Assembly (NCBI GenBank): GCA_942159475.1
Contig: OW804096.1
Span: 111,016,194 to 111,080,193 of the forward strand
Direction of reading: 5' to 3'
DNA length: 64,000 nucleotides
DNA from: Sthenelais limicola
Taxonomy: Eukaryota; Annelida; Polychaeta; Phyllodocida; Sigalionidae
Shown: positions 4,149 through 59,762 of the stretch, in pieces
Position numbering within the stretch: the first letter of the stretch is position 1
Layout of the letters: each line of letters starts with the position of its first letter
The notes under the pieces: model-generated
Databases searched by the model: none
What the model saw: the letters and a program-made list of their open reading frames with translations, nothing else
What the model was told of the DNA's origin: nothing
Made by a program: the position numbers and the translations under genes

Positions 4149-5060
4149 CTATTCTTTCTTTTCTTCAGCTAGGTATATATCAAAATCTGAATAATAGGTT
4201 GTTCTCAGATAATTCTTCATCTGCATCCTTGTTTTCATGTTCTGTACCTCACTGGGTAATTTGTTCCACAGCTCGGTAAGTCTGAAAACATAGGATTTTT
4301 TAAAAATCTCGTTCCTCGGTCTCGGTACAATAAGTTTTTTCCCTCCCTTTAATCCTCTTAATGCTATCGTTCTACTATCTATATTGGTGTCTTCTCTAGT
4401 CCTCATATAAGCCAGATCTAAGAGGTGGCTATTTCTCCTAGTCTCTATTGCGGGTATGTTTAATGTTCGATGTATTTCTTTAGTACTCGTTAATTTGGGG
4501 AGTTTCAAAATTATTTTCATAGCCGAGTTCTGAAGTGTCTGCAGCTTTTGTAGGTGTGTTTTTGTCGCTGCACCATAAAATAAGTCGCCGTAATCTATCA
4601 AAGGAAGTACCATCATTTTATACAGAAGTAACAAAGTACTCTTGTCGCATATATTATATAGTTTCGACATTGAGTGAACTTTTGCTCTTACACTAAACAT
4701 CTTTTTCCTGAGAAAAACATTATAATTCAACCTACAATCAATCTCCATTCCTAAATATTTATACTCCTTTACATTCTCCAATAATTGGCCATCGATTTTG
4801 TAGTTAACAATATTTCTAGGATCACTTTTTGACCTTATCGTTAATGCTTTACATTTACTAATATTAAGGGAAATTTTGTTCACCTTACACCACTTAACAA
4901 TGTTATCCAGGTCATTCTGAAGTTCCTCACTACCAGGCTTCCCTAATTCTCTATTTACATACAGGACCGTATCATCTGCGAAAAGTTGAACGTTACATTT
5001 TTCCACACTTTTCTGTAAATCATTGATATAAATAATAAACATTACCGGTCCCAGACTGGT
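4149..5060 (-). pseudogene. Non-LTR (CR1/Jockey-like) reverse transcriptase, 5'-truncated
   Basis: About 300 minus-strand codons cover the second half of a LINE RT. 'FIIYINDLQ' is followed by the catalytic 'LFADD' block, then 'WCKVNKISLNISK', 'YKYLGMEID', 'LLLYKMMVLPLIDYGD' and a C-terminal 'LWNKLPSEVQ' thumb-side motif. The FADD form of the active site is usual in the Jockey/CR1 group. It ends at a stop at 4149. The endonuclease domain and the front half of the RT are missing, so it cannot be autonomous. The open frame runs on to 5144, but those first residues come from a second RT copy (next entry), which makes the 331-codon ORF a chimera. The RT identity is certain and the clade is inferred. 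Confidence 0.9.
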
Positions 5061-5430
5061 TGGATAGATAATAAATTTGGTTTTTGCTTTTGTTAATTTG
5101 TCTTGTAAATGATCTTTGAACGACAGTTCCTGGTCGATGCTCATGCCAAAATAAGTGTAATTTTCTGTTTGATCGATCTCGTTTTTCCCATAAAAATTGG
5201 TTTCATAACTTTCTGGTCTTTTATTCTTGAGGTTCTCAAGGACATAATTTTGCTTTTCCCTACATTTAAAGAAATCTTATTTTCCTTACACCATACATCT
5301 ATACCTGCTAGGTCTACCTGCAGGTTCTCTTCTGCAATTCCCCTATCTCTGTTTCTGTCTCTGTATATATTACTGTGTCATCCGCAAAATGTTGGATTCT
5401 ACAGTTTTTAATAACCTTGTGAATATCACC
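5050..5430 (-). pseudogene. Second LINE RT fragment fused head-to-tail upstream
   Basis: Minus-strand reading gives an 'HFADDTVIY' block near 5371-5400, 'VWCKENKISLNV' near 5270-5305, then after a frameshift 'YTYFGMSIDQELSFKDHL' near 5110-5160. This is the same order as in the 4149-5060 copy (FADD, then WCK-NKISLN, then YLG-ID). The fragment runs directly into 'TSLGPVMFIIYINDL' of the next copy at about 5045-5060, so RT motifs repeat in tandem. It contains at least two frameshifts. This is a rearranged or doubly inserted LINE, not a functional gene. Confidence 0.7.
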
Positions 5431-12690: not shown

Positions 12691-12851
12691 TCTTAAATAC
12701 AGCATTAGTTATGCCTCCTCACCATTCAAGGATTCATTTTAAGAGCATCCAAGTATTTTCCTTAATGCCCAATTTCATTATATATTTTATTTTCAATTTT
12801 AGATTTTAGAAAAATCCACATTCCTATAATTCCCTATACTACTTCAACACT

Positions 12852-13399
12852 TCCTACCACTACATTGCAACCAGGAAAAATTCGCACCCTCCCTATACTA
12901 CTTAGTACTTCACCACTTTCTTGCAACCAGGACAAATTCCCACCCTCCCTATACTACTTAGTACTTCACCACTTTCTTGCAACCAGGACAAATTCCCACC
13001 CTCCCTATACTACTTAGTACTTCACCACTTTCTTACTACTTTATTGCAACCAGGAAAAATCCCCACCCTCCCTATACTACTTCAACACTTTCCTACTACT
13101 ACTCCAACCAGGAAACATCCCCACCCTCCCTATACTACTTAGTACTTCACCACTTTCTTACTTCTGTATTGCAACCAGGACAAATTCCCACCCTCCCTAT
13201 ACTACTTCAACACTTTCCTACCACTACTCCAACCAGGAAACATCCCCACCCTCCCTATACTACTTAGTACTTCACCACTTTCTTACTACTTTATTGCAAC
13301 CAGGAAAAATCCACATTCCTCCCTATACTACTTCAACACTTCCTACCACTACATTGCAACCAGGAAAAATTCACACCCTCCCTATACTACTTAGTACTT
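12852..13399 (+). repeat. CCCTATACTACTTAGTACTT minisatellite, left block
   Basis: Tandem units contain TTGCAACCAGG, a CCCACCCTCCCTATACTACTT segment and (TTAGTAC)TTCACCACTTTCTTAC. The period is 56 bp in the regular part (12918 to 12974) and about 67-70 bp where TACTACTTTA is added. Open frames such as those at 12921-13142 are products of the repeat. The array is interrupted at 13399/15098 by a LINE and resumes beyond it. Confidence 0.92.
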
Positions 13400-15097
13400 A
13401 AGATTAAGATTAAGATTAAGATACTTTTATTTTCGAATTCATCGCTATCAGAGAACATGACCCCAGCTAAGGGAGGTTTTCAAGCTTTCTGTTATTTACA
13501 ATCAGGGTTGAACAGTGTACAATTCTACAGTCGTCATGGACGAAGGTAGTTCACTGTTTTTTACAATAAGTTTTGACTCTTACATCAAATAGGTTGTGTA
13601 GATAGCGCACTAAAATTTATCATAATGAATCTCAGATATAGTAACTCTAAAAGATTTATGGATACATTATTAACGTTTAAGGAATTATGTATCAGCTCAT
13701 TCAATGAAATACTGGTCTGACCAAATCAGAGTTTTTTTAGCTACCATCTTAAATATTCTTGGGTCTTGTAGTCTATGTGTCATGGTTTGAAGGGCGTTCC
13801 AAGTATATGGAATTCTATGCAATATGGATTTCCGAAGTTGCTCGTTTTTGGGTATGATTTGCTTTAAGGGTTTTCTGGCTTGGGCAAAATTTCTTGTATT
13901 TAGATTTCGAATGTCTACTAGTCTTGGGTCGCCCGTCAAAGTATGGCCTGCCTGTAAAATATGAAGTCTCCTTCTATGCTTAAGAGTTAACAAATTCTTT
14001 TTGACGTGTATGTCATCTACATTGGCCCTGGATGGGAGTCCATATATCCTACGAAGTATTTTATTTTGAATTATTTGTAATTTATTTGTGCCTGTTGTGG
14101 TGTGTGAGTCGTGGAGGAGATCTGTTTGGTCTATTAGTGGTAATACCATGACTTTGTATATTAATAGCAGTGTTTCCTGAGGGATTTTGCCTTTCAATTT
14201 GGTGATTTGCCAGCATTTATAGTTCATTAAATTTATTAATTTGGTTACTGCAGTTTTAAATTTTAAGTTTCTGTCCACCTCGACTCCTAGGTATTTATAT
14301 ATATCAACGTCTTCCATTGTATTCCCATCCAGGCTCAATTTGTACTCATTCAGTTGGGATTGGTTTTCAACAACCCACCTCGACCTCATGTTTTGTTTGG
14401 GAAGGAATGTTTGTATTTTTGATTTGTCATAATTTATCGATATCTTGTTAACTTTGCACCAATATATCATGGCATTTAGGTCCTGTTGAAGCAGGTTTGT
14501 AGCTTCTAGGGCGTTTGTGCCTGTTGCATATATTATGGTGTCATCTGCAAATAATTGGATGTTTGATTTCTCAATGAATTTTGGCATATCATTTATATAA
14601 ATACTGAACAACAGTGGGCCAAGGGTTGTGCCTTGAGGTACTCCACAAGTAATGCGACTCAGGTTTGATTTTCTTTTGTTTACTTCCACAGTCTGGAACC
14701 TGTTTGTTAGGTAATTTTTGACCCAGTCTAATTCTTTATTTCTTATTCCAATAGTATTTAATTTTTCTATGAGTCGTGAGTGATTTACCGTATCAAAAGC
14801 TTTTCTGAAGTCGAGGTAGGCTGCTCTTGTTACCCTGTCTTCATTTATATTTGTATATACATCTATTAGGTAGTTCAATAAGGCATCCTTTGTTGACCGA
14901 CCCTGTCTAAATCCATATTGATAATGATACAATAAGTTATTGCTTTCTAGGTAGTACATAAGCTGTTTATGCATTGTTTTTTCAAGGAGTTTTGCAGGCA
15001 GTGGTATTGAGGAGACAGGCCTGTAGTTACTGGGGTTAGTAGTGGGACCAGCCTTATAGAGAGGAGTAACCTTTGATTGTTTCCATTCTTGTGGGAT
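13400..15097 (-). mobile_element. 5'-truncated LINE (CR1/Jockey-like) inserted in the minisatellite
   Basis: The minus-strand element ends 3' with four CTTAAT-type hexamers (13400-13423), a microsatellite tail common in CR1/L2-like LINEs. Its 5' end is cut off inside the RT. The interrupted repeat unit can be restored exactly: AGTACTT at 13399 continues as CACCACTTTC at 15098, with neither target duplication nor loss. This gives base-level boundaries. Part of the 5' junction was later duplicated (15021-15248 to 15249-15476). Confidence 0.88.
13697..15097 (-). CDS. LINE reverse transcriptase (truncated but open)
   Basis: About 467 open codons hold a nearly complete RT domain: 'PSNYRPVSSIP' fingers motif, 'YGFRQGRST', 'AYLDFRKAFDTVNH' with the first catalytic Asp, 'CGVPQGTTLGPLLF', 'LFADDTIIYA' with the catalytic Asp pair, 'WCKVNKIS', 'YKYLGVEVD' and a C-terminal 'HRIPYTWNAL...IWSDQYF' block up to the stop at 13697. 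The APE endonuclease and the start of the ORF are lost, and the first codons of the open frame are minisatellite. Compared with the copy at 4149 this frame has no stop, so the insertion is probably younger. The product would reverse-transcribe LINE RNA at the nick, but this copy cannot move on its own. Confidence 0.9.
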   Translation of the reverse strand: MPQEWKQSKVTPLYKAGPTTNPSNYRPVSSIPLPAKLLEKTMHKQLMYYLESNNLLYHYQYGFRQGRSTKDALLNYLIDVYTNINEDRVTRAAYLDFRKAFDTVNHSRLIEKLNTIGIRNKELDWVKNYLTNRFQTVEVNKRKSNLSRITCGVPQGTTLGPLLFSIYINDMPKFIEKSNIQLFADDTIIYATGTNALEATNLLQQDLNAMIYWCKVNKISINYDKSKIQTFLPKQNMRSRWVVENQSQLNEYKLSLDGNTMEDVDIYKYLGVEVDRNLKFKTAVTKLINLMNYKCWQITKLKGKIPQETLLLIYKVMVLPLIDQTDLLHDSHTTTGTNKLQIIQNKILRRIYGLPSRANVDDIHVKKNLLTLKHRRRLHILQAGHTLTGDPRLVDIRNLNTRNFAQARKPLKQIIPKNEQLRKSILHRIPYTWNALQTMTHRLQDPRIFKMVAKKTLIWSDQYFIE

Positions 15098-15690
15098 CAC
15101 CACTTTCTTACCACTAGATTACAACCAGGAAAGATTCCCCCCCCTCCCTATACTACTTAGTACTTCACCACTTTCTTGCTACTTTATTGCAACCAGGACA
15201 TATTCCCACCCTCCCTATACTACTTAGTACTTACTTCACCTGTAAGGTCTGTAGTTACTGGGGTTAGTAGTGGGACCAGCCTTATAGAGAGGAGTAACCT
15301 TTGATTGTTTCCATTCTTGTGGGATCACCACTTTCTTACCACTAGATTACAACCAGGAAAGATTCCCCCCCCCTCCCTATACTACTTAGTACTTCACCAC
15401 TTTCTTGCTACTTTATTGCAACCAGGACAAATTCCCACCCTCCCTATACTACTTAGTACTTACTTCACCACTTTCTTACTACTGTATTGCAACCAGGACA
15501 AATTCCCACCCTCCCTATACTACTTAGTACTTCAACACTTTCTTACTACTTTATTGCAACCAGGAAAAATCCCCACCCTCCCTATACTACTTAGTACTTC
15601 AACACTTTCCTACAACTACATCACAACCAGGAAACATCCCCACCCTCCCTATACTACTTAGTACTTCAACACTTTCTTACTACTACATTG
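15098..15690 (+). repeat. Minisatellite right block with embedded 228-bp duplication
   Basis: The same repeat family as 12852-13399 resumes at CACCACTTTCTTACC. Segment 15021-15248 (77 bp of LINE 5' end plus minisatellite) is repeated in tandem as 15249-15476, with an extra C in a C-run. The open frame at 15305-15661 comes from the repeat. Confidence 0.9.
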
Positions 15691-15694
15691 CCAC

Positions 15695-15830
15695 CAGTAG
15701 TCTAGTGGCCAGAGAGGTGAACCTTGCTTTGGCGTCCATATGACGAGTGATTCTACATCTCCTGAATCTCCTGATTTCAGATCTGCCGGGTGCAACGCTG
15801 TAACCCTTGGGCAAAAAAGGTTATAAGCAT
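15695..15830 (+). repeat. Possible tRNA-derived SINE relic
   Basis: AGTAGTCTAGTGGCCAGAG (about 15699) resembles a pol III A box with its tRNA context. About 70 bp on, GATTTCAGATCTGCC could be a degenerate B box, and GCAACGCTGTAACCCTTGGGCAAA matches the 'cccttgggcaa' segment common in vertebrate and invertebrate SINEs. No poly(A) or target duplication was seen. It abuts the minisatellite end. Confidence 0.4.
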
Positions 15831-47439: not shown

Positions 47440-47530
47440 CCCGGGACGTTGGGGCCCCAGACCGTTAGGGCCCAGACGTTAGGGCCAGGCCTTAGACAGT
47501 AGGGCCCCCAGCTTTGGACAGTAGGGCCCC
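47440..47530 (+). repeat. GACGTTAGGGCCC cluster, left
   Basis: Four to six degenerate copies of GGAC(G/A)(T/G)TAGGGCCCC lie in about 90 bp. The same motif appears inverted (GGGGCCCTAACGTC) at 55985-56140 on the other side of the hAT element. Confidence 0.8.
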
Positions 47531-48029: not shown

Positions 48030-48035
48030 AGAATA
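48030..48035. repeat. hAT target-site duplication, left
   Basis: AGAATA directly precedes the TIR and is identical to 55814-55819. Confidence 0.85.
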
Positions 48036-49183
48036 CAGAGGTGCCAAACCTCCCATGTTGGCGGGAGATCTCCCGTTTTTCTGACCAATTTGGGACTTAC
48101 TCCCGTGTCCACATCAAAATCTCCCATGTCGGCCTAATGTCTGGCCTAATGATGAAATCACATGTGGGCATACCTCCTGCGGGTACAAACAATAGGATGC
48201 AGGCCGGGGATGAAGGCAGCATCCTGAAAATTCTTATAGCTGCCACCACCCGATGTATAGTAAAAACATTGATAAGGAGAATTAATCTCCTCTGATCTGG
48301 GTACCCCCATTTGATATATAAATGTAAAATAAACATGGGAAAGGAAATTAATCTCAATGAAAACATGTTGGAGGCCCATATGCAGCTATATGCGGAAATT
48401 CAGGAGTCTGCTAGCCATTCTGCTCTCTGATTCCAACCATACAAGATCAACTAGAAAAGACACTCAGAACGGCTTCAGTTTTTCAAAAAACGTGGACAAT
48501 GGCAGAAGGCAAAGAAAGGCCAAGAAAAAGGCCAAAATACGCCACTAAGTTCAATCCTGACTGGGAGAAAGAGTTTGATGGAATAAGATGGGATAAAAGT
48601 GATCAGCACAAAGCTCTGTGCACATATTGTAATGTTAGTTTTACGGTGTCTGCTGGAGGCAAAAACTGCGTGTAGAGGCATGTGGATTGACCAATACATT
48701 TAAATTCAGTTAGCGATGCTAAAAGACATGGTAAGCAGACCAGGATTTTTTAACTTCAACATGGTCCCAACCATACATCACTGGATGATCAAGTAACGAC
48801 GGCAGAAATATTGTGGGCCAATTTCGTGGGCCAACACAACCTGCCGTTTACCGCCTCAAATTGTTTTTCTGAATTGGTGAAACATATGTTTCCTGACAGC
48901 AAGATAGCAGAGAAGTTCTCTTGCAAAAGGACAAAGACTGTAGCCATTGCCGTGCATGCACTGGAGGTGGAGGAGAGGGAGAAAAACATCAGATACACAA
49001 AGCAGGGCCCCACAACGCTCATGGTTGATGAATCAAACAAACGAGATGATGACAAGGCATGTGCGTTTGTGCTAAAAGTGATTAACCCAGACCTCGGACG
49101 GGTGCAAAATAGGTTTCTGAATATGCCTATATGCAACAAAGTAATGCAGCAAATCTCTTTGATAAGATTGACGCCATACTGAA

Positions 49184-49330
49184 GTAAGTGTTTTATTTTA
49201 TTTTATTTTTAAAAAGTATTTTTATGTGTCTGATTTAAATTTTATAGTTGTTTCCCAGCCACTTGCTTCACCTTCTTTAATGTAAAAATTATGAAATACA
49301 AGTGCTAAAATTTATTTGTAACCATTCCAG
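49184..49330 (+). other. Transposase intron 1
   Basis: GTAAGTG donor at 49184 and a CCATTCCAG acceptor ending 49330. Removal joins codon AA|G and continues into KNGIPWES in the frame required upstream. Confidence 0.75.
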
Positions 49331-49694
49331 GAAGAATGGTATTCCATGGGAGTCAATAAAGGGCTTTTCTTCTGACAATGCACCTGTGATGGTAGGTAAG
49401 AAGAAGTCGGTTTTGTCAAGAGTAAGAGAGGCAACAAATAAGCAAGTGTTTGGCCTCGGCTGTGTGTCACATATAGCCAATTTATGTGCACAGGCCTTAG
49501 TGAAATGTTTGAAGGAACCGGTGGAAGATCTCCTGGTCGACACCTATTTCTGGTTTGATAAATGGTAAGTTAATTAAGTGCATACTAAAACAAAGTACGG
49601 TATAATGACTATGCTTGAACCATGTTGTATACATGTATATGTATGTACATGGTATATATCATGCGTAAAATCAATATCAAATTAATGATAAATC

Positions 49695-49800
49695 TGTAAT
49701 GTTTGGCTTGTGTACATCGACGACGTCACTTCCGCCCGTGCAGGCGCAATAAAGATCAGAGTTAGCACGCTATTCTCCGCGTTGATTCACGTTCATTTCA
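49695..49800 (+). repeat. 5' LTR, 106 bp
   Basis: It begins TGTAATG and ends TTTCA. AATAAA (within GCAATAAAGATC) near 49747 may be the polyadenylation signal. It differs from the 3' LTR at two sites (GTGCAGGCG against GCGCAGGCA). Confidence 0.95.
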
Positions 49801-49818
49801 TGGTGTCAGAAGTGGTCG
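49801..49818 (+). other. Primer binding site, Leu-tRNA type
   Basis: TGGTGTCAGAAGTGGTCG starts directly after the LTR. It complements a 3' tRNA end ...CCACTTCTGACACCA, of the kind found in leucine tRNAs. Confidence 0.75.
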
Positions 49819-49988
49819 AATTTCCTGTGTTAGAACGATGCAAGCCATCCGAAACAATCAGGATTTGTTGATAACCCACTAGGGATACTATAGAAAGGTC
49901 TGTAGCAAGCTGTTAAGCTACATTTAAGCTGCTTTGGACTTGTTTATATCAGCTAGACCCAGCGTGACTCCCGTTTCCCGCACTCAAG

Positions 49989-52900
49989 ATGGCGGACGAC
50001 GACAATGGAGTGAAGCTTGGTAGATTCAAGCCATCAGACATCGAATCATGTGCTAGTGAATGGGAGTCATATAAGAGACAGTTTGAAATCCATCTAGACT
50101 CTAAAGGACTACATGATGCCGCTGGTAGAAGGTTGGTAGGACAGCTACTAAAACACATGGGTCAGGAGCATGTGAAAATATATGATAGTTTTGTTTGGGC
50201 TCTAGCCATTGATGCAGTTGAGGCTGACCCAGATAATGGCATCCTAGGAGTAGTAGGAGTTGCTGCAGAAGACAGGTATAACCTAGACACTGTATTTGCT
50301 AAGTTTGACGCATATTTTGGAGTACACAGATACCGTAGTATTAAAAGGCAGGAGTTCCTTGGCACAACTAGAAACGTTAAGACTCAAACCATCATGGGTT
50401 TCATTTCTGACTTGAGGGCTAAAGCCCAACATTGCAACTATGGGGCCTTGGAAGACAGCCTTATCATTGACATGATAATAAATAGGGTCAATGATTCTAA
50501 GTGTACTGAAAAGCTAATGGAACTTGCAGATGATCAGCTGAGTATGAACAATGTCACTAGGATATGCAGACAGGTTGAATTAACACAAGCTCATGTTAAG
50601 AACCTAGAAAGCCAAAACCAAGGGGAAGCACAGGTCCACTACTCAGGAAACAGAAGTCAAGGAAGGGGAAGAGGACGTGGTACAGGATACCACAACAGTG
50701 GTACAGGATACCACAACGGTGGTACAGGATACTACAGCGGTGGTACAGGATACAACAACAGTGGTGCAGGACACAATAGTAACTCTAAGTGCAACAAGTG
50801 TTGTAGAAATCACAACCCAGGTTATTGTAAAGCTGATAATGAGTTCTGTGGGGCTTGTGGGTCAAAGGTGCATTTTTGTAAATCATCTCTGTGTCAAGCC
50901 AAACCTCAAGGTTCAGGTAATTCCAGAGGTCGTGGAAACTCATATAATGGCCGTGGTAGGGGTAGTAGCCGTAGCAACTACAACCATGGTAGCTATGGGT
51001 ACAGGAACCAAGGACAAAGGGTGCACTATACAGATGACAATAGCAGCCAGAACTATGAACATGAATATGAAGAAACCTCTGAGGGTCACGATGGAATGAA
51101 TGAGATGTTTGATAATTTTGATTCCATGCATGTCAATGTTTACAATGTTGGGGATGATTGTATTGACGGGGATTTCTATGCAATGTTGAAGGTTGAAAAT
51201 GATTCATTTCAGGTCGAGTTAGATACAGGGGCCAAGTGTAACATTCTGAGTTTAAAATCTTTGGAGAAACTGAATGTAAACTATGATTTGAAGCAAAGTG
51301 CTACTGTTATTACAGGTATTCACGGTATCAGCAACCAAGCTGTAGGTTCTGTAATTCTACCTTGTACATACAAGAACATGATGAGACATGTTGAATTCCA
51401 GGTATTGGATGGTAAGAAAAATGTCAATTTACTTGGAAGGACCGACTGTGTTAGATTTGGTCTGGTCGCCCGTACCAATAAGATTACTGTTAATGATGCT
51501 TGTGAGTCAGTTGTGTCTAAGTACGCAGATGTATTTGGGGACCAAATTGGGTGCCTCCCAGGGGAATATGACATTAAGATAGACGAAACCATCCCCCCCA
51601 CAATTCATCCACCGCGGTCCGTGCCTTGCGCTCTCCGAGAGAAAGTCAAAGCAGAACTCCATCGGCTGGAGGTGCTCGGAATCATAAAGAAGGTGACAGA
51701 GCCAACGCCGTGGGTCAGCAGCATGGTTGTCGTCAGTAAGAAGGACAAAGACAAGGTGCGCATATGCATAGACCCCACAGATCTGAACAAAGCCATTCGC
51801 CGCGAACACTTCCCGATGAGCAATATTGACGATATTGTGACAAGACTTCATGGAAGCAAGCACTTTACCACCCTCGATGCCAACATGGGCTACTTCCATA
51901 TTATGTTGACCGAGAAGAGCTCGTACCTAACGACCTTTAATACACCGTTTGGTCGGTACCGTAACCTGAGAATGCCCATGGGGGCAAAGTGTTCTGCGGA
52001 TAAATTTCAGTCAGCACTGGTAGGAGCTTTCGAGGAGATTCCCGGAGTGGAAATCTACCAGGATGACATCCTCATCCACGGAAAGACGATGACTGAGCAC
52101 AACAACCGACTCGAGAAAGTGCTTGAGAAATGCAGAAGCATCAACCTGAAACTCAACAAGAAAAAGTGTCAAGTTGGGAAGTCGGAAGTCGACTACATAG
52201 GCCACAAGCTGACCGGAGAGGGCCTCCAACCAACAGAGGACAGAGTAAAGGCAATAACAAGCATGAGACCTCCCAGAGACGTTAAAGAGCTGGAGACAGT
52301 ACTTGGGATGGTAGCTTATGTCGCGAAATTCATCCCTCGACTAAGCGAACTGACAGCGCCACTACGAGAGCTGAAAACACAAGATGAATGGCACTGGGGA
52401 CTAGAGCAGCAGACAGCGTTCAGCAGGATAAAGCAAGAACTGTCATCGAACAGAGTTCTCAGATACTTCGATGTCCGGAAGCCATTACTGATCTCAGTGG
52501 ACGCAAGCTGCAAGGGACTAGGGGCAGCCGCAATCCAAGATGGAGCCGTAGTCGCCTATGCCTCAAGAACTATAACGCCAACTGAGCAGCGCTATGCACA
52601 GATTGAAAAGGAAATGTTAGCTGTGGTGTACGGCTGCACCAAGTTTCATAAGCTAGCATACGGGAAAGACGATATCACAGTGGAGAGTGACCACACACCT
52701 CTGGAAGCGCTGATGAAGAAGCCAATGAGTGCCAACCCAATGAGAATCCAGAGAATGAGACTAAAGCTTGAGCCGTATTCCTTCAAGCTCATCCATGTCA
52801 GCGGAAAATCAATTGGACTTGCTGATTGTCTCAGCAGACTTCCGATCACCGGGGAATCAAGCGACGTCATGATGGACGAGGACTTAATGGTATGTAAGAT

Positions 52901-54299
52901 CGATACCCTGGCTCATAAATGGCATGAACAAATTGAGGAAGCAACAAGGAGTGATGAGGAGATGTTGGCGTTGAAGAGGGTTATATTCAACGGATGGCCA
53001 GCCAACAAGCAAGAACTACCGACCAGCGTAGCCCCATATTGGAGCATGAGAGACCAGTTGAGCACCTACAATGGGATCGTGTTCAAGGGGGAAAGGATAA
53101 TCATACCACAAAAGCTTCGAGGCAAAATCCTCAAGACCTTACATCAGTCACACACGGGCATCGTGAAAACCAAGCAGCGGGCTCGAGACATGGTGTATTG
53201 GCCAGGTCTAAATGCGCAGATCGAGGAAATGGCAAGCCAATGCCCTGCGTGTCTAGAGAATCAGACCAAACAGCAAAAAGAACCTCTAACTGTTCACCCG
53301 ATTCCAGCACTCCCGTGGAACAAGGTCGGAGCAGACCTATTTGAGCTAGACGGTGCTCACTATATCCTCATGGTCGATTACTATTCCAATTTCATAGAAG
53401 TGGCGCCACTCCGCCAAGACACAAGATCTCCAACAGTAATCCGTAACATCAAAGATAACATAGCCCGATATGGTATTATGGAGATTCTAGTGACAGATAA
53501 CGGGCCCCAGTTTAGCAGCACCCCGTTCAAGGAATTCACAGAAGCATATGGAATCAACCATATTACCTCATCGCCAACATACCCGCAATCGAATGGTCTT
53601 GCTGAAGAAGGGGTGAGGCAGGTAAAAGACCTGATGAAGAAATGTAAGCAGTCCGGCGACGATTTCTTCTTAGCACTACTGGACCTGAGAAACACACCGC
53701 GCGACGAGATTTTAGGATCGCCCATGCAGCGACTCCAAGGGAGACGAGCCCAAACCAGTCTTCCTATAGCCGACAGCAAACTCAGACCAGCAGTCCCAGA
53801 ACCAAACCAAGTACATGAAAGAATGATGGGGTACCGGAGACAGCAGAAAATATATCACGATAGAGGTGCACAATCTCTAAAGCCGATAGATGAAGACAAA
53901 GGACTTAGGGTATGGACTCCACAAGGCTGGAAGCCAGCTGAATATATTCGCCATGACACCGCTCCAAACTCCCACATAATCAAGGCTGGAGAGCAAGGAC
54001 GACTGTACAGGCGAAACCGAAGAGACCTCTTGATAACTGGAGAGAGACCTCACACTATCAGGACTCCAGGGCCACACATGCCACCAGCAATCCAAACTAG
54101 ACCAGGGCAAATCCAAACACCTAACCCGCCAGCTCTAGTCAACCCACCTGAGGAAACTCCAAACCAGCCAGGTCCAACACAGAAGCCACCAGCACCGGCA
54201 CCAAAGCCGCCACCTCCTCCAGCACACGCTGCTCCACCACCCAACAGACCGAGCAGAGTAAAAAGGAGCCCAGCCTGGATGAAGGACTATGTTCCATAA
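49989..54299 (+). CDS. Gypsy gag-pol polyprotein, 1436 aa
   Basis: The ATG at 49989 is in good context (AAGATGG). Domains by residue: gag/capsid 1-230; a Gly/Tyr/Asn repeat of 8-residue units (about 230-265); two Cys/His clusters (CNKCCRNHNPGYC and CGACGSKVHFC, 268-300); aspartic protease with LDTGAK (about 410); RT with 'TTLDANMGYFH' and a YQDD active site (about 690; the second residue is Gln, both Asp are kept); RNase H with VDASCKG (about 837) and 'DCLSRLP'; integrase with H-x3-H...CPAC (1050-1090), catalytic Asp at about 1115 and 1169 and Glu at about 1206; and a Pro-rich tail. No stop or frameshift is present. Expression without a frameshift signal means gag and pol would be made in equal amounts. 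Confidence 0.95.
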   Translation: MADDDNGVKLGRFKPSDIESCASEWESYKRQFEIHLDSKGLHDAAGRRLVGQLLKHMGQEHVKIYDSFVWALAIDAVEADPDNGILGVVGVAAEDRYNLDTVFAKFDAYFGVHRYRSIKRQEFLGTTRNVKTQTIMGFISDLRAKAQHCNYGALEDSLIIDMIINRVNDSKCTEKLMELADDQLSMNNVTRICRQVELTQAHVKNLESQNQGEAQVHYSGNRSQGRGRGRGTGYHNSGTGYHNGGTGYYSGGTGYNNSGAGHNSNSKCNKCCRNHNPGYCKADNEFCGACGSKVHFCKSSLCQAKPQGSGNSRGRGNSYNGRGRGSSRSNYNHGSYGYRNQGQRVHYTDDNSSQNYEHEYEETSEGHDGMNEMFDNFDSMHVNVYNVGDDCIDGDFYAMLKVENDSFQVELDTGAKCNILSLKSLEKLNVNYDLKQSATVITGIHGISNQAVGSVILPCTYKNMMRHVEFQVLDGKKNVNLLGRTDCVRFGLVARTNKITVNDACESVVSKYADVFGDQIGCLPGEYDIKIDETIPPTIHPPRSVPCALREKVKAELHRLEVLGIIKKVTEPTPWVSSMVVVSKKDKDKVRICIDPTDLNKAIRREHFPMSNIDDIVTRLHGSKHFTTLDANMGYFHIMLTEKSSYLTTFNTPFGRYRNLRMPMGAKCSADKFQSALVGAFEEIPGVEIYQDDILIHGKTMTEHNNRLEKVLEKCRSINLKLNKKKCQVGKSEVDYIGHKLTGEGLQPTEDRVKAITSMRPPRDVKELETVLGMVAYVAKFIPRLSELTAPLRELKTQDEWHWGLEQQTAFSRIKQELSSNRVLRYFDVRKPLLISVDASCKGLGAAAIQDGAVVAYASRTITPTEQRYAQIEKEMLAVVYGCTKFHKLAYGKDDITVESDHTPLEALMKKPMSANPMRIQRMRLKLEPYSFKLIHVSGKSIGLADCLSRLPITGESSDVMMDEDLMVCKIDTLAHKWHEQIEEATRSDEEMLALKRVIFNGWPANKQELPTSVAPYWSMRDQLSTYNGIVFKGERIIIPQKLRGKILKTLHQSHTGIVKTKQRARDMVYWPGLNAQIEEMASQCPACLENQTKQQKEPLTVHPIPALPWNKVGADLFELDGAHYILMVDYYSNFIEVAPLRQDTRSPTVIRNIKDNIARYGIMEILVTDNGPQFSSTPFKEFTEAYGINHITSSPTYPQSNGLAEEGVRQVKDLMKKCKQSGDDFFLALLDLRNTPRDEILGSPMQRLQGRRAQTSLPIADSKLRPAVPEPNQVHERMMGYRRQQKIYHDRGAQSLKPIDEDKGLRVWTPQGWKPAEYIRHDTAPNSHIIKAGEQGRLYRRNRRDLLITGERPHTIRTPGPHMPPAIQTRPGQIQTPNPPALVNPPEETPNQPGPTQKPPAPAPKPPPPPAHAAPPPNRPSRVKRSPAWMKDYVP

Positions 54300-54568
54300 T
54301 CCCAAACCTTTAGAAATCTAAACTCATACTGCGCATTTGCATACTTTACACAACGGGCACACTTGACGTACGATACCTGACATGTCTCACAAACATTTCT
54401 AAGTCATATGATGAATTGTTTATCCTGGTGCTAAGATACATCTTTGGTAATCTCATGGTTATTATCATACCTAGTCTTTAACCTTGTGTTTGATGCTCCA
54501 AGATCTGTATTTAGAACATGAGTTGTTCAGGTGCTATCACTACATATATATATGCCACCTTCTAAAAT

Positions 54569-54587
54569 TTGTAAAAAAAAAAGAGGA
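54569..54587 (+). other. Polypurine tract
   Basis: An A-run followed by GAGGA ends directly at TGTAATG of the 3' LTR, as needed for plus-strand priming. Confidence 0.85.
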
Positions 54588-54693
54588 TGTAATGTTTGGC
54601 TTGTGTACATCGACGACGTCACTTCCGCCCGCGCAGGCACAATAAAGATCAGAGTTAGCACGCTATTCTCCGCGTTGATTCACGTTCATTTCA
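54588..54693 (+). repeat. 3' LTR, 106 bp
   Basis: It matches the 5' LTR except at two bases and is followed by the AAATC target duplication. Confidence 0.95.
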
Positions 54694-55813
54694 AAATCAA
54701 TGGCCAATATATAGTAAGTAGAGCGTAAATAATTAGGTACAATTCAATTCCACAGTTTCCTTGTCTGGTATAAAATATTTAGACTTGATTGTAACTTTCT
54801 TGCAGCTCTGGTCGGCGAGAGAACTACAAGTTCTACCAGTTATTTACCGATACCCCTATGGAAATCCTCATTAAGCACATATCAACAAGGTGGCTATCGT
54901 TGGAAAGATGTGTCAACCGCATTCTGTCTCAGTGGCCAGCTCTCCAGAGCTATTACAATAGTATCCCGGAAGCAGAGAAACCTGGACGGGCAATGCGATG
55001 CAAAGAGGCTTACAACAGTGAGTCCATGAGACTGACGTACATTTTTCTAAGTCATGCGCTGAAAGGGCTGAATAAGTTCAACGTCCTCTTTCAGGTGAGT
55101 ACAGTAATGTACACATTTATGGGGAATGTAGCTCATTATCACTGCGTGGGATAGGGGGTAGCAGAATTATGATCATTTTTGCATGTGATGCTGAACCTAT
55201 TCTATATTTTGGTCCTTAAGGGGAGTGAGTGAGTGATGGTTGCTTAATGCCATGACAACATCCATGTGGAGTCATATTCATGGCAATTGGTCCTTAAGGG
55301 GGAAGGCTGTAGGATACTGCAGGTCCTGGATGAAACAAAGCAACTATTCAGGCTGTATCTTAGTGGCTTTGTCAAGCATGCCGTAGTGAGCCAGACAGTA
55401 GACATCCTGAAGCTGGAGTGTATGATGATCCCCAGGTGCAAGTAACCGATGAAGAATTGGATATTGGCATTGCTGCTCACAGGTACATTGAGATTATCCA
55501 GGAGGACTGACCCATCTATCATCAACCACTTCTACAGGTATTTCCAGTAAAATATGTTTGTGTATTTGCACAGTTAACGCTGATAATTATTAATTATTCC
55601 TTATTGCATTGAAATGATATATTGACTTATTAAAATGTGTCTTTAACGTTTAAATAAATAAATATATATTTCAGGGATGTTAGGAATGCCCATATCGCCC
55701 TGAGGCCCCTTTCAGTACTATTCACATTGCTCCCGCCCCAGACCCCCCCCCCCCCCCCGCCCCCCAGGACGGGAGATCTCCCGTATCTGACCTCTTCCTA
55801 CTTGGCACCTCTG

Positions 55814-55819
55814 AGAATA
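55814..55819. repeat. hAT target-site duplication, right
   Basis: AGAATA, identical to 48030-48035. Confidence 0.85.
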
Positions 55820-55984: not shown

Positions 55985-56140
55985 TAACCATAAATCGGGG
56001 GGGGGGGGGGGTGCTGCCATGGACTCGGGGCCCCTACCGTCCATGGCAGGAGCCCTACCGGCGGGGCCCTAACGTCCAAACCGGGGGCCCTAACGTCCAG
56101 GCCCAGGGCCCTACCGCCTGGGGCCCTAACGTCTCGGGGG
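55985..56140 (-). repeat. GACGTTAGGGCCC cluster, right (inverted)
   Basis: Several GGGGCCCTAACGTC or GGGCCCTACCG units follow a G-run (about 55998-56013). They are inverted relative to 47440-47530. Confidence 0.8.
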
Positions 56141-57063: not shown

Positions 57064-57454
57064 TGTGATGGAGTGGAATTATCCATTACACAGCATTCAG
57101 ACCTATAGTCCAGAGATAAGTCATATCAGGTCAGTGGGAGTATTAGATACACATAGGGGGAGGTAACATACATACTTAGGAATATAGATTGTAAACCAGA
57201 CTCCACCTCTTCACCTGTACGCATGAATATTGATAATTTGATATGATATATATATGAGCTAGAGATATTAAAAGACAGAACCTTTATGGAATTGAAACTG
57301 TTGTGTCATTCTTTACTGTACTTATATTAGAGGATCATACATAGACCAACTTAGAGATATCCACTCACACATATACCACAGGACTTCTAGTATACATTCA
57401 CCCAATATCGATCTTAAAAGTATATACATGCATATCTACAGTCTAGTGGACGCA
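57064..57454 (+). repeat. Tentative 5' LTR of the second Gypsy element
   Basis: It starts TGTGATGG and includes a TATA-like TATATATATGAG (about 57245). It ends near GTGGACGCA before ATTGTATCATTGGTGGAAG, where a primer site would be expected. The matching 3' LTR lies outside the window, so both ends are guesses. Confidence 0.3.
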
Positions 57455-57503
57455 TTGTATCATTGGTGGAAGAATCCGGATTGGGTTTGGATTGTATTTC
57501 TGG

Positions 57504-59762
57504 ATGTCTGAGAGTGAGGGGGATTCTCTGGATTCTGTGTTAAATCTCACAGACACCAACAGAAGTATACTCAACACTACTGCTGAGTTTATTGTCAGTA
57601 CTCAGAGGCTCTTCAAAGGGAAGAGAAACATCCCCAGGACTGGGAGTTTTTCACAGCAAATGGACAAAATAGCGGCAAGGATAGGAGGAGTTGTTTCCAG
57701 CATGACAAAGGCAAAAAAGGTGGGTGTGTTTGCTGATAACACTAACTCTAACACTAACAGTTCAGCAAAAAGCACTGCATCTGTATCTAATATTGACTCT
57801 AAAATTAAAGGAAGTGCTCCACCTGCATATGGGGAATCTGTGGACCATAGGGTTAAGCCCAGTGCAGCAAAACCTAATGCACCATTAATACAAATAGGAG
57901 GGGGGGTAAGTAGTACATATTTGGGGGCTATGGGAATGGGACAAGCTGGGGGATTTGCACAAGACAATACGGGACCTTGGGATGAATGGGACAATTGCGC
58001 ACATGAGTTTGTAGGACATGCACAGCCCACCTATCACCAAGCCGCTATTTTAGTTCAAGAAAACCGACGGTTAAAGCAAGAGTTGGATCGCACATTAGAT
58101 GCAGAGCGTCAGCGTCAGCGCGATTACGAAGACCGCATTGACGTAATTGCGCATGAGCTGCGCGACACAAAGCGAACGCTGAAGGAGAGCGACGCAGACA
58201 GAGGGGCGCACATCAGTCATCTGAAGCGTGAGCTCATAGAGGAGTCCGTCAAGAGGGACCAAGAGCTCTTGGAAGAGAGGAGCGGGCATGAGCGCAGGGC
58301 GGCAGCCCTGGAGCAGGAGTTGAGGATTCAAGCGGAGGCACTAGCCAAAAAAGACAAGGAGTTCTGCTTGGCTAAGGACAGGTACCGCCAAGATCAGGAA
58401 GATATAGAGCGAAGGCTCGTCCTCCTGAGGCAAAGACACTGCACACACGAGAGCTGCGGGCGTGGCCGGTGTCCGGAGGTGACTTGCATAGAGAGCAGGC
58501 TGGGCTCCGAGTCGAGTGGAAAGGCGACGCCAGAAATTCGCTTGCCCTTCCAGTTTACAACAAGCACAAGGGGTCCTGACGCACCGGAAGGCCCTCCCAG
58601 GGGAACCGTTGATATGGAACGGGAGTCAGGAAACGCGGCCATGCGTTTTTTCGTGGAACCACCGGACAAATTCTCCGAATCAACGGCGCTGAGATCGGTG
58701 GAGGAGTTTTTCTCCGAATATGAGGCGTGGGCAACAGCCCTAAACATAAAGCGAGTCTTTTGGCTCCAGGGGCTGAGCGCCCGCCTCGAAGGCTCGGCGA
58801 GGAGCTTCTATAAGCAGCTGACTGCACCTAATCGAGGACGCCCGGTGTACGATGACGTCAAGGAGCGTTTTCTGGATAACTTCAAAGAACTTCCATTCGG
58901 AGAAGTAAAAGAAGATTACAGCCGGCGCCGCCAGGGAGATAAGGAATCGGTGAAGGAGTATGCCGACTCCATGCTCACGCTGCTAGCGAGGACATCTCTG
59001 ACGGAAGATGAACGCACTAAGGCCTTCTTGGCAGGCCTGAAGGACGGACTGATGGAGCGAGTGCTCACGGAAAACCCACGCACTAGCGAGTTGGCCTTCA
59101 GAATCGCGCTCAAGTACGAGATGTCCGATATTCAGCGCGATAAGGCTCTCGAACGCTTAATGCCAGATGCAACTGCCATGATAGCTGCCCTGACTATGGC
59201 AGGTTATCAGGTGGAATCGAAGGAGGAGGGCGTTAATGCGGTGCAGCAATTTGCGCCATCAACAGGGGGAAAGAAATCCTGGGACGGGAGGGGCAAGGGT
59301 CGAGGGGGTTCGCAACGCGGTGGAGGCCGTGGTGGTTACCAGAATACCCAAAATAACCAGAGTTATCAGAATAACCAGGGTTACCAGGGCTACCAGAATA
59401 ACCAGAACCAAGACCAAAGCTCCCCCAACCAAGAGCTACCTCAGCAATTTGCTCAGGCAACGCCAGGATACATGGCAAGCAACGGAACTCTGCAACCATT
59501 GCCAGTGCCGATGCAATTCCCGCCAGGTTACGGCATGCCTGCGGCACCACAATTTCTGCAACCACCGCCAGGACAATTCTTCCCTCAGCCTCCGCAGCAG
59601 CAACAGAACCAGTCCTACCATAGGGGACAGAACCAGGGGGGCCATTACCAGCAGTGGGGAAACGGCCAGGGGGGTCAGAATAATCAGGGAAACCAGGGAA
59701 ACCAGGGAAATCAGGGAAATCAGAAGGGGGGACAGAAGGGGGGTCAGGGTAATTTTTTCTAG
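57504..59762 (+). CDS. Gypsy gag with coiled coil and Q/N-G-rich tail, 752 aa
   Basis: The open frame begins at 57492 without ATG; the first ATG is 57504 (MSESEGDSLDSVL). Residues 1-160 are Ser/Thr/Ala-rich. About 162-320 form a charged heptad-rich coiled coil (RRLKQELDRTLDAERQRQRD and on), ending in a Cys cluster HCTHESCGRGRCPEVTC. About 375-550 is a retrotransposon gag/capsid domain ('FSEYEAWATALNIKRVFWLQ', 'VYDDVKERFLDNF', 'VKEYADSMLTLLAR'). About 585-752 is RGG/YQNNQ/GNQ low complexity, likely RNA-binding in place of zinc knuckles. The length is about twice a usual Gypsy gag. It overlaps pol at the frameshift site. Confidence 0.88.
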   Translation: MSESEGDSLDSVLNLTDTNRSILNTTAEFIVSTQRLFKGKRNIPRTGSFSQQMDKIAARIGGVVSSMTKAKKVGVFADNTNSNTNSSAKSTASVSNIDSKIKGSAPPAYGESVDHRVKPSAAKPNAPLIQIGGGVSSTYLGAMGMGQAGGFAQDNTGPWDEWDNCAHEFVGHAQPTYHQAAILVQENRRLKQELDRTLDAERQRQRDYEDRIDVIAHELRDTKRTLKESDADRGAHISHLKRELIEESVKRDQELLEERSGHERRAAALEQELRIQAEALAKKDKEFCLAKDRYRQDQEDIERRLVLLRQRHCTHESCGRGRCPEVTCIESRLGSESSGKATPEIRLPFQFTTSTRGPDAPEGPPRGTVDMERESGNAAMRFFVEPPDKFSESTALRSVEEFFSEYEAWATALNIKRVFWLQGLSARLEGSARSFYKQLTAPNRGRPVYDDVKERFLDNFKELPFGEVKEDYSRRRQGDKESVKEYADSMLTLLARTSLTEDERTKAFLAGLKDGLMERVLTENPRTSELAFRIALKYEMSDIQRDKALERLMPDATAMIAALTMAGYQVESKEEGVNAVQQFAPSTGGKKSWDGRGKGRGGSQRGGGRGGYQNTQNNQSYQNNQGYQGYQNNQNQDQSSPNQELPQQFAQATPGYMASNGTLQPLPVPMQFPPGYGMPAAPQFLQPPPGQFFPQPPQQQQNQSYHRGQNQGGHYQQWGNGQGGQNNQGNQGNQGNQGNQKGGQKGGQGNFF
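59753..59762 (+). promoter_or_regulatory. Programmed -1 frameshift site T-TTT-TTC before gag stop
   Basis: The gag codons read AAT TTT TTC TAG, so T TTT TTC (59753-59759) matches X-XXY-YYZ and sits immediately before the UAG. A -1 slip enters the pol frame, which is open from there to 64000. A downstream RNA stem was not worked out. Confidence 0.75.

What the first reader, a model, noticed from the sequence alone, without database searches (positions are those of the whole stretch)
48030..55819. Gypsy element nested in an intron of a hAT transposase, with exact footprints of both
The hAT TIRs and a 6-bp AGAATA duplication, and the Gypsy 106-bp LTRs with AAATC duplication, are all present. The transposase frame continues across the intron once the Gypsy element is treated as intronic. 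The order of events is clear: hAT first, Gypsy later, in sense orientation.
Basis: seen in the sequence. Interest (0 to 1): 0.75.

Follow-up and report, generated by a model that had tools for sequence, protein, structure and literature searches.

The report
Retrotransposon inside a dead transposon's intron
A young-looking, apparently intact Gypsy-type retrotransposon has inserted into an intron of a broken hAT transposon gene in what looks like an animal genome, a tidy example of ordinary nested mobile DNA.

Summary
A hAT copy (48036-55813) has perfect 12-bp inverted ends and a 6-bp AGAATA duplication. Inside it lies a 4,999-bp Gypsy element (49695-54693) with 106-bp LTRs differing at 2 sites, an AAATC duplication, and one uninterrupted gag-pol frame. 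Splicing 49564 to 54806 (GT...AG, codon TG|C) joins two exons that abut without a lost or gained residue against a 684-aa hAT relative, so the Gypsy does sit in an intron. Three corrections apply. First, the transposase gene is a pseudogene: three in-frame stops in exon 1, two frame breaks, and no recognisable C-terminal part with the dimerisation region. 'The frame continues' holds only locally. Second, 6 bp is not the usual 8-bp hAT duplication, but it is a described variant (hAT6). Third, the footprints prove that the Gypsy entered hAT sequence, not that this hAT copy was already at this site. A published precedent exists (LTR sequence, seemingly BEL, in intron 2 of a Drosophila willistoni BuT2 hAT). 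Copies elsewhere in the genome could not be examined: the own-genome search did not complete. Ordinary nested transposons; low interest.

The parts
48030..48035 (+). hAT target-site duplication AGAATA, left copy
48036..48047 (+). hAT terminal inverted repeat, left, CAGAGGTGCCAA
48062..48076 (.). subterminal motif CGGGAGATCTCCCGT, contains a palindrome, also at the right end
   Evidence: D13, I8
48499..49183 (+). hAT transposase exon 1, broken: in-frame stops TAG 48673-48675, TGA 48688-48690, TAA 48751-48753, and a frame break near 49141
   Evidence: start ATG by inspection
49184..49330 (+). hAT intron 1 (GT...AG, 147 bp)
   Evidence: boundaries by inspection
49331..49564 (+). hAT exon 2, uninterrupted, 78% identical to P0002 residues 240-317
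49565..54805 (+). hAT intron 2, phase 2 (codon TG|C); 237 bp without the Gypsy element and its extra AAATC
49690..49694 (+). Gypsy target-site duplication AAATC, left
49695..49800 (+). 5' LTR, 106 bp, AATAAA at 49748
49801..49815 (+). primer binding site candidate TGGTGTCAGAAGTGG directly after the 5' LTR; tRNA-Leu complement is my recollection, not tested
49989..54299 (+). single uninterrupted gag-pol frame: protease, RT, RNase H, H2C2 zinc domain, integrase with 35 residues between second D and E; gag by position only
54573..54587 (+). polypurine tract directly before the 3' LTR
54588..54693 (+). 3' LTR, 2 of 106 sites differ from the 5' LTR, both in CpG/TpG or CpG/CpA contexts; AATAAA at 54641
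54694..54698 (+). Gypsy target-site duplication AAATC, right
54806..55094 (+). hAT exon 3, uninterrupted, 63% identical to P0002 residues 318-414
55095..55298 (+). hAT intron 3 (GT...AG, 204 bp; its 3' site has little of a pyrimidine tract, so this boundary is the least sure)
   Evidence: boundaries by inspection
55299..55507 (+). hAT exon 4 remnant, frame break between 55418 and 55421, stop at 55508; matches to P0002 end at residue 483 of 684, one to P0063 runs on weakly through the stop to 55576
55770..55784 (.). subterminal motif CGGGAGATCTCCCGT, right copy
55802..55813 (-). hAT terminal inverted repeat, right
55814..55819 (+). hAT target-site duplication AGAATA, right copy

Best explanation
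A hAT transposon of the 6-bp-duplication kind lost its transposase gene to stops, frame breaks and loss of the C-terminal end. Separately, an intact-looking Gypsy (Ty3-like) LTR retrotransposon was copied through RNA and integrated, with a 5-bp staggered cut, into the 237-bp second intron of that hAT copy in sense orientation. Shown: both sets of ends and duplications, the exact exon junction by comparison with relatives, the broken hAT gene, the unbroken Gypsy frame. Inferred: copying through RNA (from the element's family); that the hAT gene was mostly dead before the Gypsy arrived; and that the insertion therefore has little effect. Its sense orientation also brings an AATAAA signal in each LTR into the hAT unit, so even a working copy might have been truncated rather than cleanly spliced.
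For: Perfect nested footprints. Exon pieces abut exactly at 49564/54806 against a 684-aa hAT relative with a C-terminal dimerisation region, and in 70 of 113 relatives matching both pieces. Three stops and two frame breaks in hAT. One open Gypsy frame of 1,436 codons from its ATG, with protease, RT, RNase H and integrase matches and 35 residues between the second D and the E. At the LTR divergence of 2/106, the hAT gene should have gained about 0.5 stops since the Gypsy arrived; chance of 3 or more is 0.014.
Against: The dating is weak: at the upper 95% limit of LTR divergence (0.066), three or more stops since the Gypsy arrived has a chance of 0.26, though the intact Gypsy frame would then be unlikely (0.004). 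The two LTR differences lie in CpG contexts, which change fast. Perfect hAT ends and duplication beside a decayed gene are only mildly expected (about 0.12 for 36 intact sites if the whole copy had decayed 5.7% since insertion). The junction is exact in 70 of 113 relatives, not in all. The window's own hAT reading reaches no Pfam cut-off (DUF4371 at E 0.003, below its cut-off; exon pieces alone match no hAT model); the hAT placement rests on relatives. No second copy of either element was found: blastn (E up to 0.01) found none elsewhere in the window, and the genome could not be searched.
Confidence: 0.9

Rival explanations
1. The hAT copy already carried the Gypsy when it made its last jump to this site, mobilised in trans by another hAT's transposase, so the 7.8-kb composite moved as one unit.
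For: hAT ends and duplication are perfect although the gene is decayed, as for a non-autonomous copy that moved recently; both footprints look young.
Against: 7.8 kb would be long for a hAT; published range 2.5-5 kb (PMC3942097, passage). No second copy of the composite in the window. A simple later Gypsy insertion needs fewer steps.
Confidence: 0.08
2. The 6-bp duplication is a chance match and the element is an 8-bp hAT whose duplication has mutated, or has lost a flank.
For: hAT elements usually make 8-bp duplications (PMC12730594; PMC3942097). The right flank is rich in AGAAT-like words.
Against: The six bases match exactly and abut both perfect ends; the 8-bp flanks match at only 4 of 8 positions by eye (TGAGAATA/AGAATAGA). 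6-bp hATs are a described group.
Confidence: 0.06
3. The hAT gene is host-domesticated and still used, and the Gypsy sits in a spliced intron of a working gene.
For: Exons 2 and 3 are open and 78% and 63% identical to P0002.
Against: Three in-frame stops in exon 1, two frame breaks and no recognisable C-terminus; both inverted ends still present.
Confidence: 0.02

Closest known systems
BuT2 hAT copy of Drosophila willistoni with a 424-bp insertion, seemingly a BEL LTR retrotransposon, in intron 2 (PMC3942097, passages)
   Same: LTR retrotransposon sequence in intron 2 of a multi-exon hAT transposase gene that also carries a stop in exon 1; 12-bp inverted ends
   Different: There the insert is 424 bp and seemingly BEL, and the duplications are 8 bp with one mismatch; here the insert is a full 5-kb Gypsy element with an intact frame and the hAT duplication is 6 bp
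hAT6 group (6-bp duplications; Kapitonov and Jurka 2007, cited in PMC12730594, passages; the 2007 reports themselves not seen)
   Same: hAT transposase relatives and a 6-bp target-site duplication
   Different: No named hAT6 sequence was available to compare, so subgroup membership rests on duplication length from one copy
Animal Gypsy/Ty3-like elements, some annotated 'K02A2.6-like' (listing)
   Same: RT then RNase H; the 120 listed of 2,043 hits are 44-80% identical over 56-100% of the 466-aa query

Membership tests
hAT superfamily | transposase homologous to hAT transposases | tested here: met
   143 proteins at E<=0.001 among 1,274 candidates, 120 listed; best full-length P0002 at 7.2e-160, 60% identity over 98%; P0002 has Dimer_Tnp_hAT at 3.8e-07. 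The window's own reading alone reaches no Pfam cut-off
hAT superfamily | short terminal inverted repeats | tested here: met
   12 of 12 bp
hAT superfamily | 8-bp target-site duplication (usual, not universal) | tested here: not met
   6 bp; 8-bp flanks disagree. The superfamily also holds 5-, 6- and 7-bp groups (PMC12730594), so this does not exclude hAT
hAT superfamily | C-terminal dimerisation region in this copy | tested here: not met
   matches to P0002 end at residue 483; the region is at 594-645. One 13-residue match (E 2.0) of P0015 falls in intron 3 at 55163-55201, treated as chance. The copy is defective: filed as a hAT-derived remnant, not as a working hAT
hAT6 group | 6-bp target-site duplication | tested here: met
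   one copy only
hAT6 group | transposase groups with named hAT6 proteins | not testable with these tools
   no hit named hAT6 among the 120 listed
Gypsy (Ty3-like) LTR retrotransposons | two direct LTRs beginning TG and ending CA, short (here 5-bp) duplication | tested here: met
   TGTAATG...TTTCA, AAATC
Gypsy (Ty3-like) LTR retrotransposons | order protease, RT, RNase H, integrase | tested here: met
   RVP 1.6e-4 within 50700-51506, RVT_1 8.8e-11 within 51504-52049, RT_RNaseH 7.6e-25 within 52401-52901, Integrase_H2C2 3.2e-15 within 52899-53300, rve 1.9e-12 within 53301-53900
Gypsy (Ty3-like) LTR retrotransposons | gag protein | tested here: inconclusive
   first 237 aa match no Pfam model; gag by position only
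Gypsy (Ty3-like) LTR retrotransposons | clade within Gypsy (for example Mag-like) | not tested
   no named clade references were compared

The most novel reading that the evidence does not exclude
A transposase-dead 6-bp-duplication hAT was moved in trans to this site with a complete Gypsy retrotransposon already in its intron, so a cut-and-paste transposon ferried an intact copy-and-paste element.
Probability: 0.07. Interest if true: 0.35.

Novelty: new member of a known kind. Interest (0 to 1): 0.15.

Why it matters
It is a clean, fully bounded case of nested transposons: useful for relative dating, and a worked warning that a local open frame across an intron does not make a transposase gene functional. 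The intact Gypsy frame with nearly identical LTRs suggests recent Gypsy activity in this genome. Nothing here changes a general picture.

Tried and rejected
Searched for other copies. blastn (E up to 0.01) of the two hAT halves and the LTR against the window found only themselves and the two LTRs. With up to 2 mismatches the hAT end occurs 7 times in the window against 5.1 expected (29 of 100 shuffles had at least 7), so only the two perfect ends count. Scans of the viral and prokaryote contig collections with the full-length relative P0002 found 3 and 7 pattern matches, none confirmed as a relative, as expected for animal DNA. Rfam and tRNA scans of the window found nothing. No paper held the primer-site letters together with 'primer binding site', so the tRNA-Leu assignment stays recollection.

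Considered and rejected: hAT surrounding the Gypsy by chance (the Gypsy has its own duplication inside the intron); the intron being a second insertion (relatives abut exactly there); a domesticated gene (stops, frame breaks, unrecognisable C-terminus).

A maximum-likelihood tree of 33 rows (the window's hAT and 32 of the 120 listed relatives, 12 of them with an organism name) puts the window's hAT with P0001-P0003, support 100/100. It names no subgroup.

Paper searches. Of these I saw the listings and abstract starts, and beyond that only passages of PMC12730594 and PMC3942097.

Full report
What is there. A hAT copy spans 48036-55813 (7,778 bp; 2,774 bp without the Gypsy element and its extra AAATC). 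Its ends are a perfect 12-bp inverted repeat, CAGAGGTGCCAA, flanked on both sides by AGAATA. In the whole window this is the only pair of perfect 12-bp inverted ends within 12 kb that also carries a 6-bp duplication; 20 mononucleotide shuffles gave none. The motif CGGGAGATCTCCCGT stands 26 bp in from the left end and 29 bp in from the right.

The Gypsy element. LTRs of 106 bp at 49695-49800 and 54588-54693 differ at 2 sites, both in CpG/TpG or CpG/CpA contexts (one search prints the context). AAATC lies on each side. TGGTGTCAGAAGTGG follows the 5' LTR directly and a purine tract precedes the 3' LTR. One frame runs without a stop from an ATG at 49989 to 54299. Searched in pieces, it matches protease, RT, RNase H, H2C2 zinc domain and integrase models in that order, with 35 residues between the second catalytic D and the E. 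The gag part matches no Pfam model. A 466-aa RT-RNase H piece finds 2,043 proteins at E<=0.001 among 7,988 scored candidates, 120 listed. Listed hits with an organism name are 46-53% identical and come from molluscs, corals and a sea anemone, a sea cucumber, fishes and a moth (animal groups assigned by me from the species names); several are called 'K02A2.6-like'. No clade assignment was made.

Is it in an intron? Yes, on comparative grounds. P0002, a 684-aa hAT relative with a C-terminal hAT dimerisation region, matches 49329-49562 with residues 240-317 and 54804-55094 with residues 318-414: nothing is lost or gained between. The splice TG|GTAAGT ... TTGCAG|C restores one codon (cysteine where P0002 has serine) and leaves the frame open. 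Of the 120 listed relatives, 119 matched at least one of the two exon pieces and 113 matched both; in 70 of the 113 the pieces abut exactly, in 33 the relative has one or two residues more, and in 10 the offset is otherwise. Two further introns of 147 and 204 bp (boundaries by inspection) suggest that the 237-bp pre-insertion intron is of normal size for this gene. No RNA evidence was available.

The gene is dead: TAG at 48673, TGA at 48688 and TAA at 48751 in exon 1, a frame break near 49141, and another between 55418 and 55421, followed by a stop at 55508. Matches to P0002 end at residue 483; one relative, P0063, is matched weakly through that stop as far as 55576. So roughly the last 180-200 residues, including the dimerisation region (P0002 594-645), are not recognisable. 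One 13-residue, E 2.0 match of P0015's C-terminal part falls in intron 3 and is taken as chance. In 427 readable codons about 4.1% of substitutions would create a stop. Three stops suggest roughly 5.7% decay, against about 0.9% per lineage for the LTRs. If the hAT gene had decayed only since the Gypsy arrived, three or more stops would have a chance of 0.014 at the point estimate but 0.26 at the upper limit of LTR divergence. So the gene was probably, not certainly, dead before the Gypsy came.

The order. The AAATC duplication inside the intron shows that the Gypsy entered hAT sequence. It does not show where that hAT copy then was. A copy that later jumped with the Gypsy aboard would look the same. 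I consider this unlikely (0.07-0.08) but not excluded.

Compared with what is known. hAT elements usually make 8-bp duplications, but groups with 5, 6 and 7 bp have been described as hAT5, hAT6 and hAT7 (PMC12730594, passages). One copy with 6 bp fits hAT6 by that feature; no named hAT6 protein was on hand for comparison. LTR sequence inside a hAT intron is in print: a Drosophila willistoni BuT2 copy has a 424-bp insertion, seemingly BEL, in intron 2, and its exon 1 carries a stop (PMC3942097, passages). The present case is therefore another, better bounded, member of a known kind.

Limits. The organism was not identified; hAT relatives with an organism name are molluscs, fishes, coelacanth and arthropods, which together with the introns points to an animal genome (inference).

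Noticed in passing
47440-47530 and 56026-56138: GC-rich arrays built on ACGTTAGGGCCC stand in inverted orientation on either side of the hAT copy (best alignment 47440-47530 with 56063-56138: 91 columns, 71% identity, E 1.7e-7). They may be ends of an older outer element into which the hAT inserted; no clear duplication outside them was seen by eye.
   Followed up: partly
55209-55223 and 55287-55301: Exact 15-bp direct repeats TTGGTCCTTAAGGGG flank 63 bp inside hAT intron 3 and overlap its inferred 3' splice site (D14); perhaps a small insertion with its duplication.
   Followed up: no
57447-59762: A second, different LTR-type gag frame of 771 aa (Retrotrans_gag, E 2.3e-10) begins 1.6 kb downstream of the hAT.
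   Followed up: no
13697-15118 (- strand) and 4149-5276 (- strand): Long frames that look like non-LTR (LINE) reverse transcriptases by eye; not searched.
   Followed up: no
12831-13399, 15097-15232 and 15325-15697: Related tandem arrays (units sharing TCCCTATACTACTTAGTACT) lie on both sides of the 13697-15118 frame.
   Followed up: no
50677-50771: A 21-bp tandem repeat (4.5 copies, a multiple of three) in the gag part of the Gypsy element.
   Followed up: no
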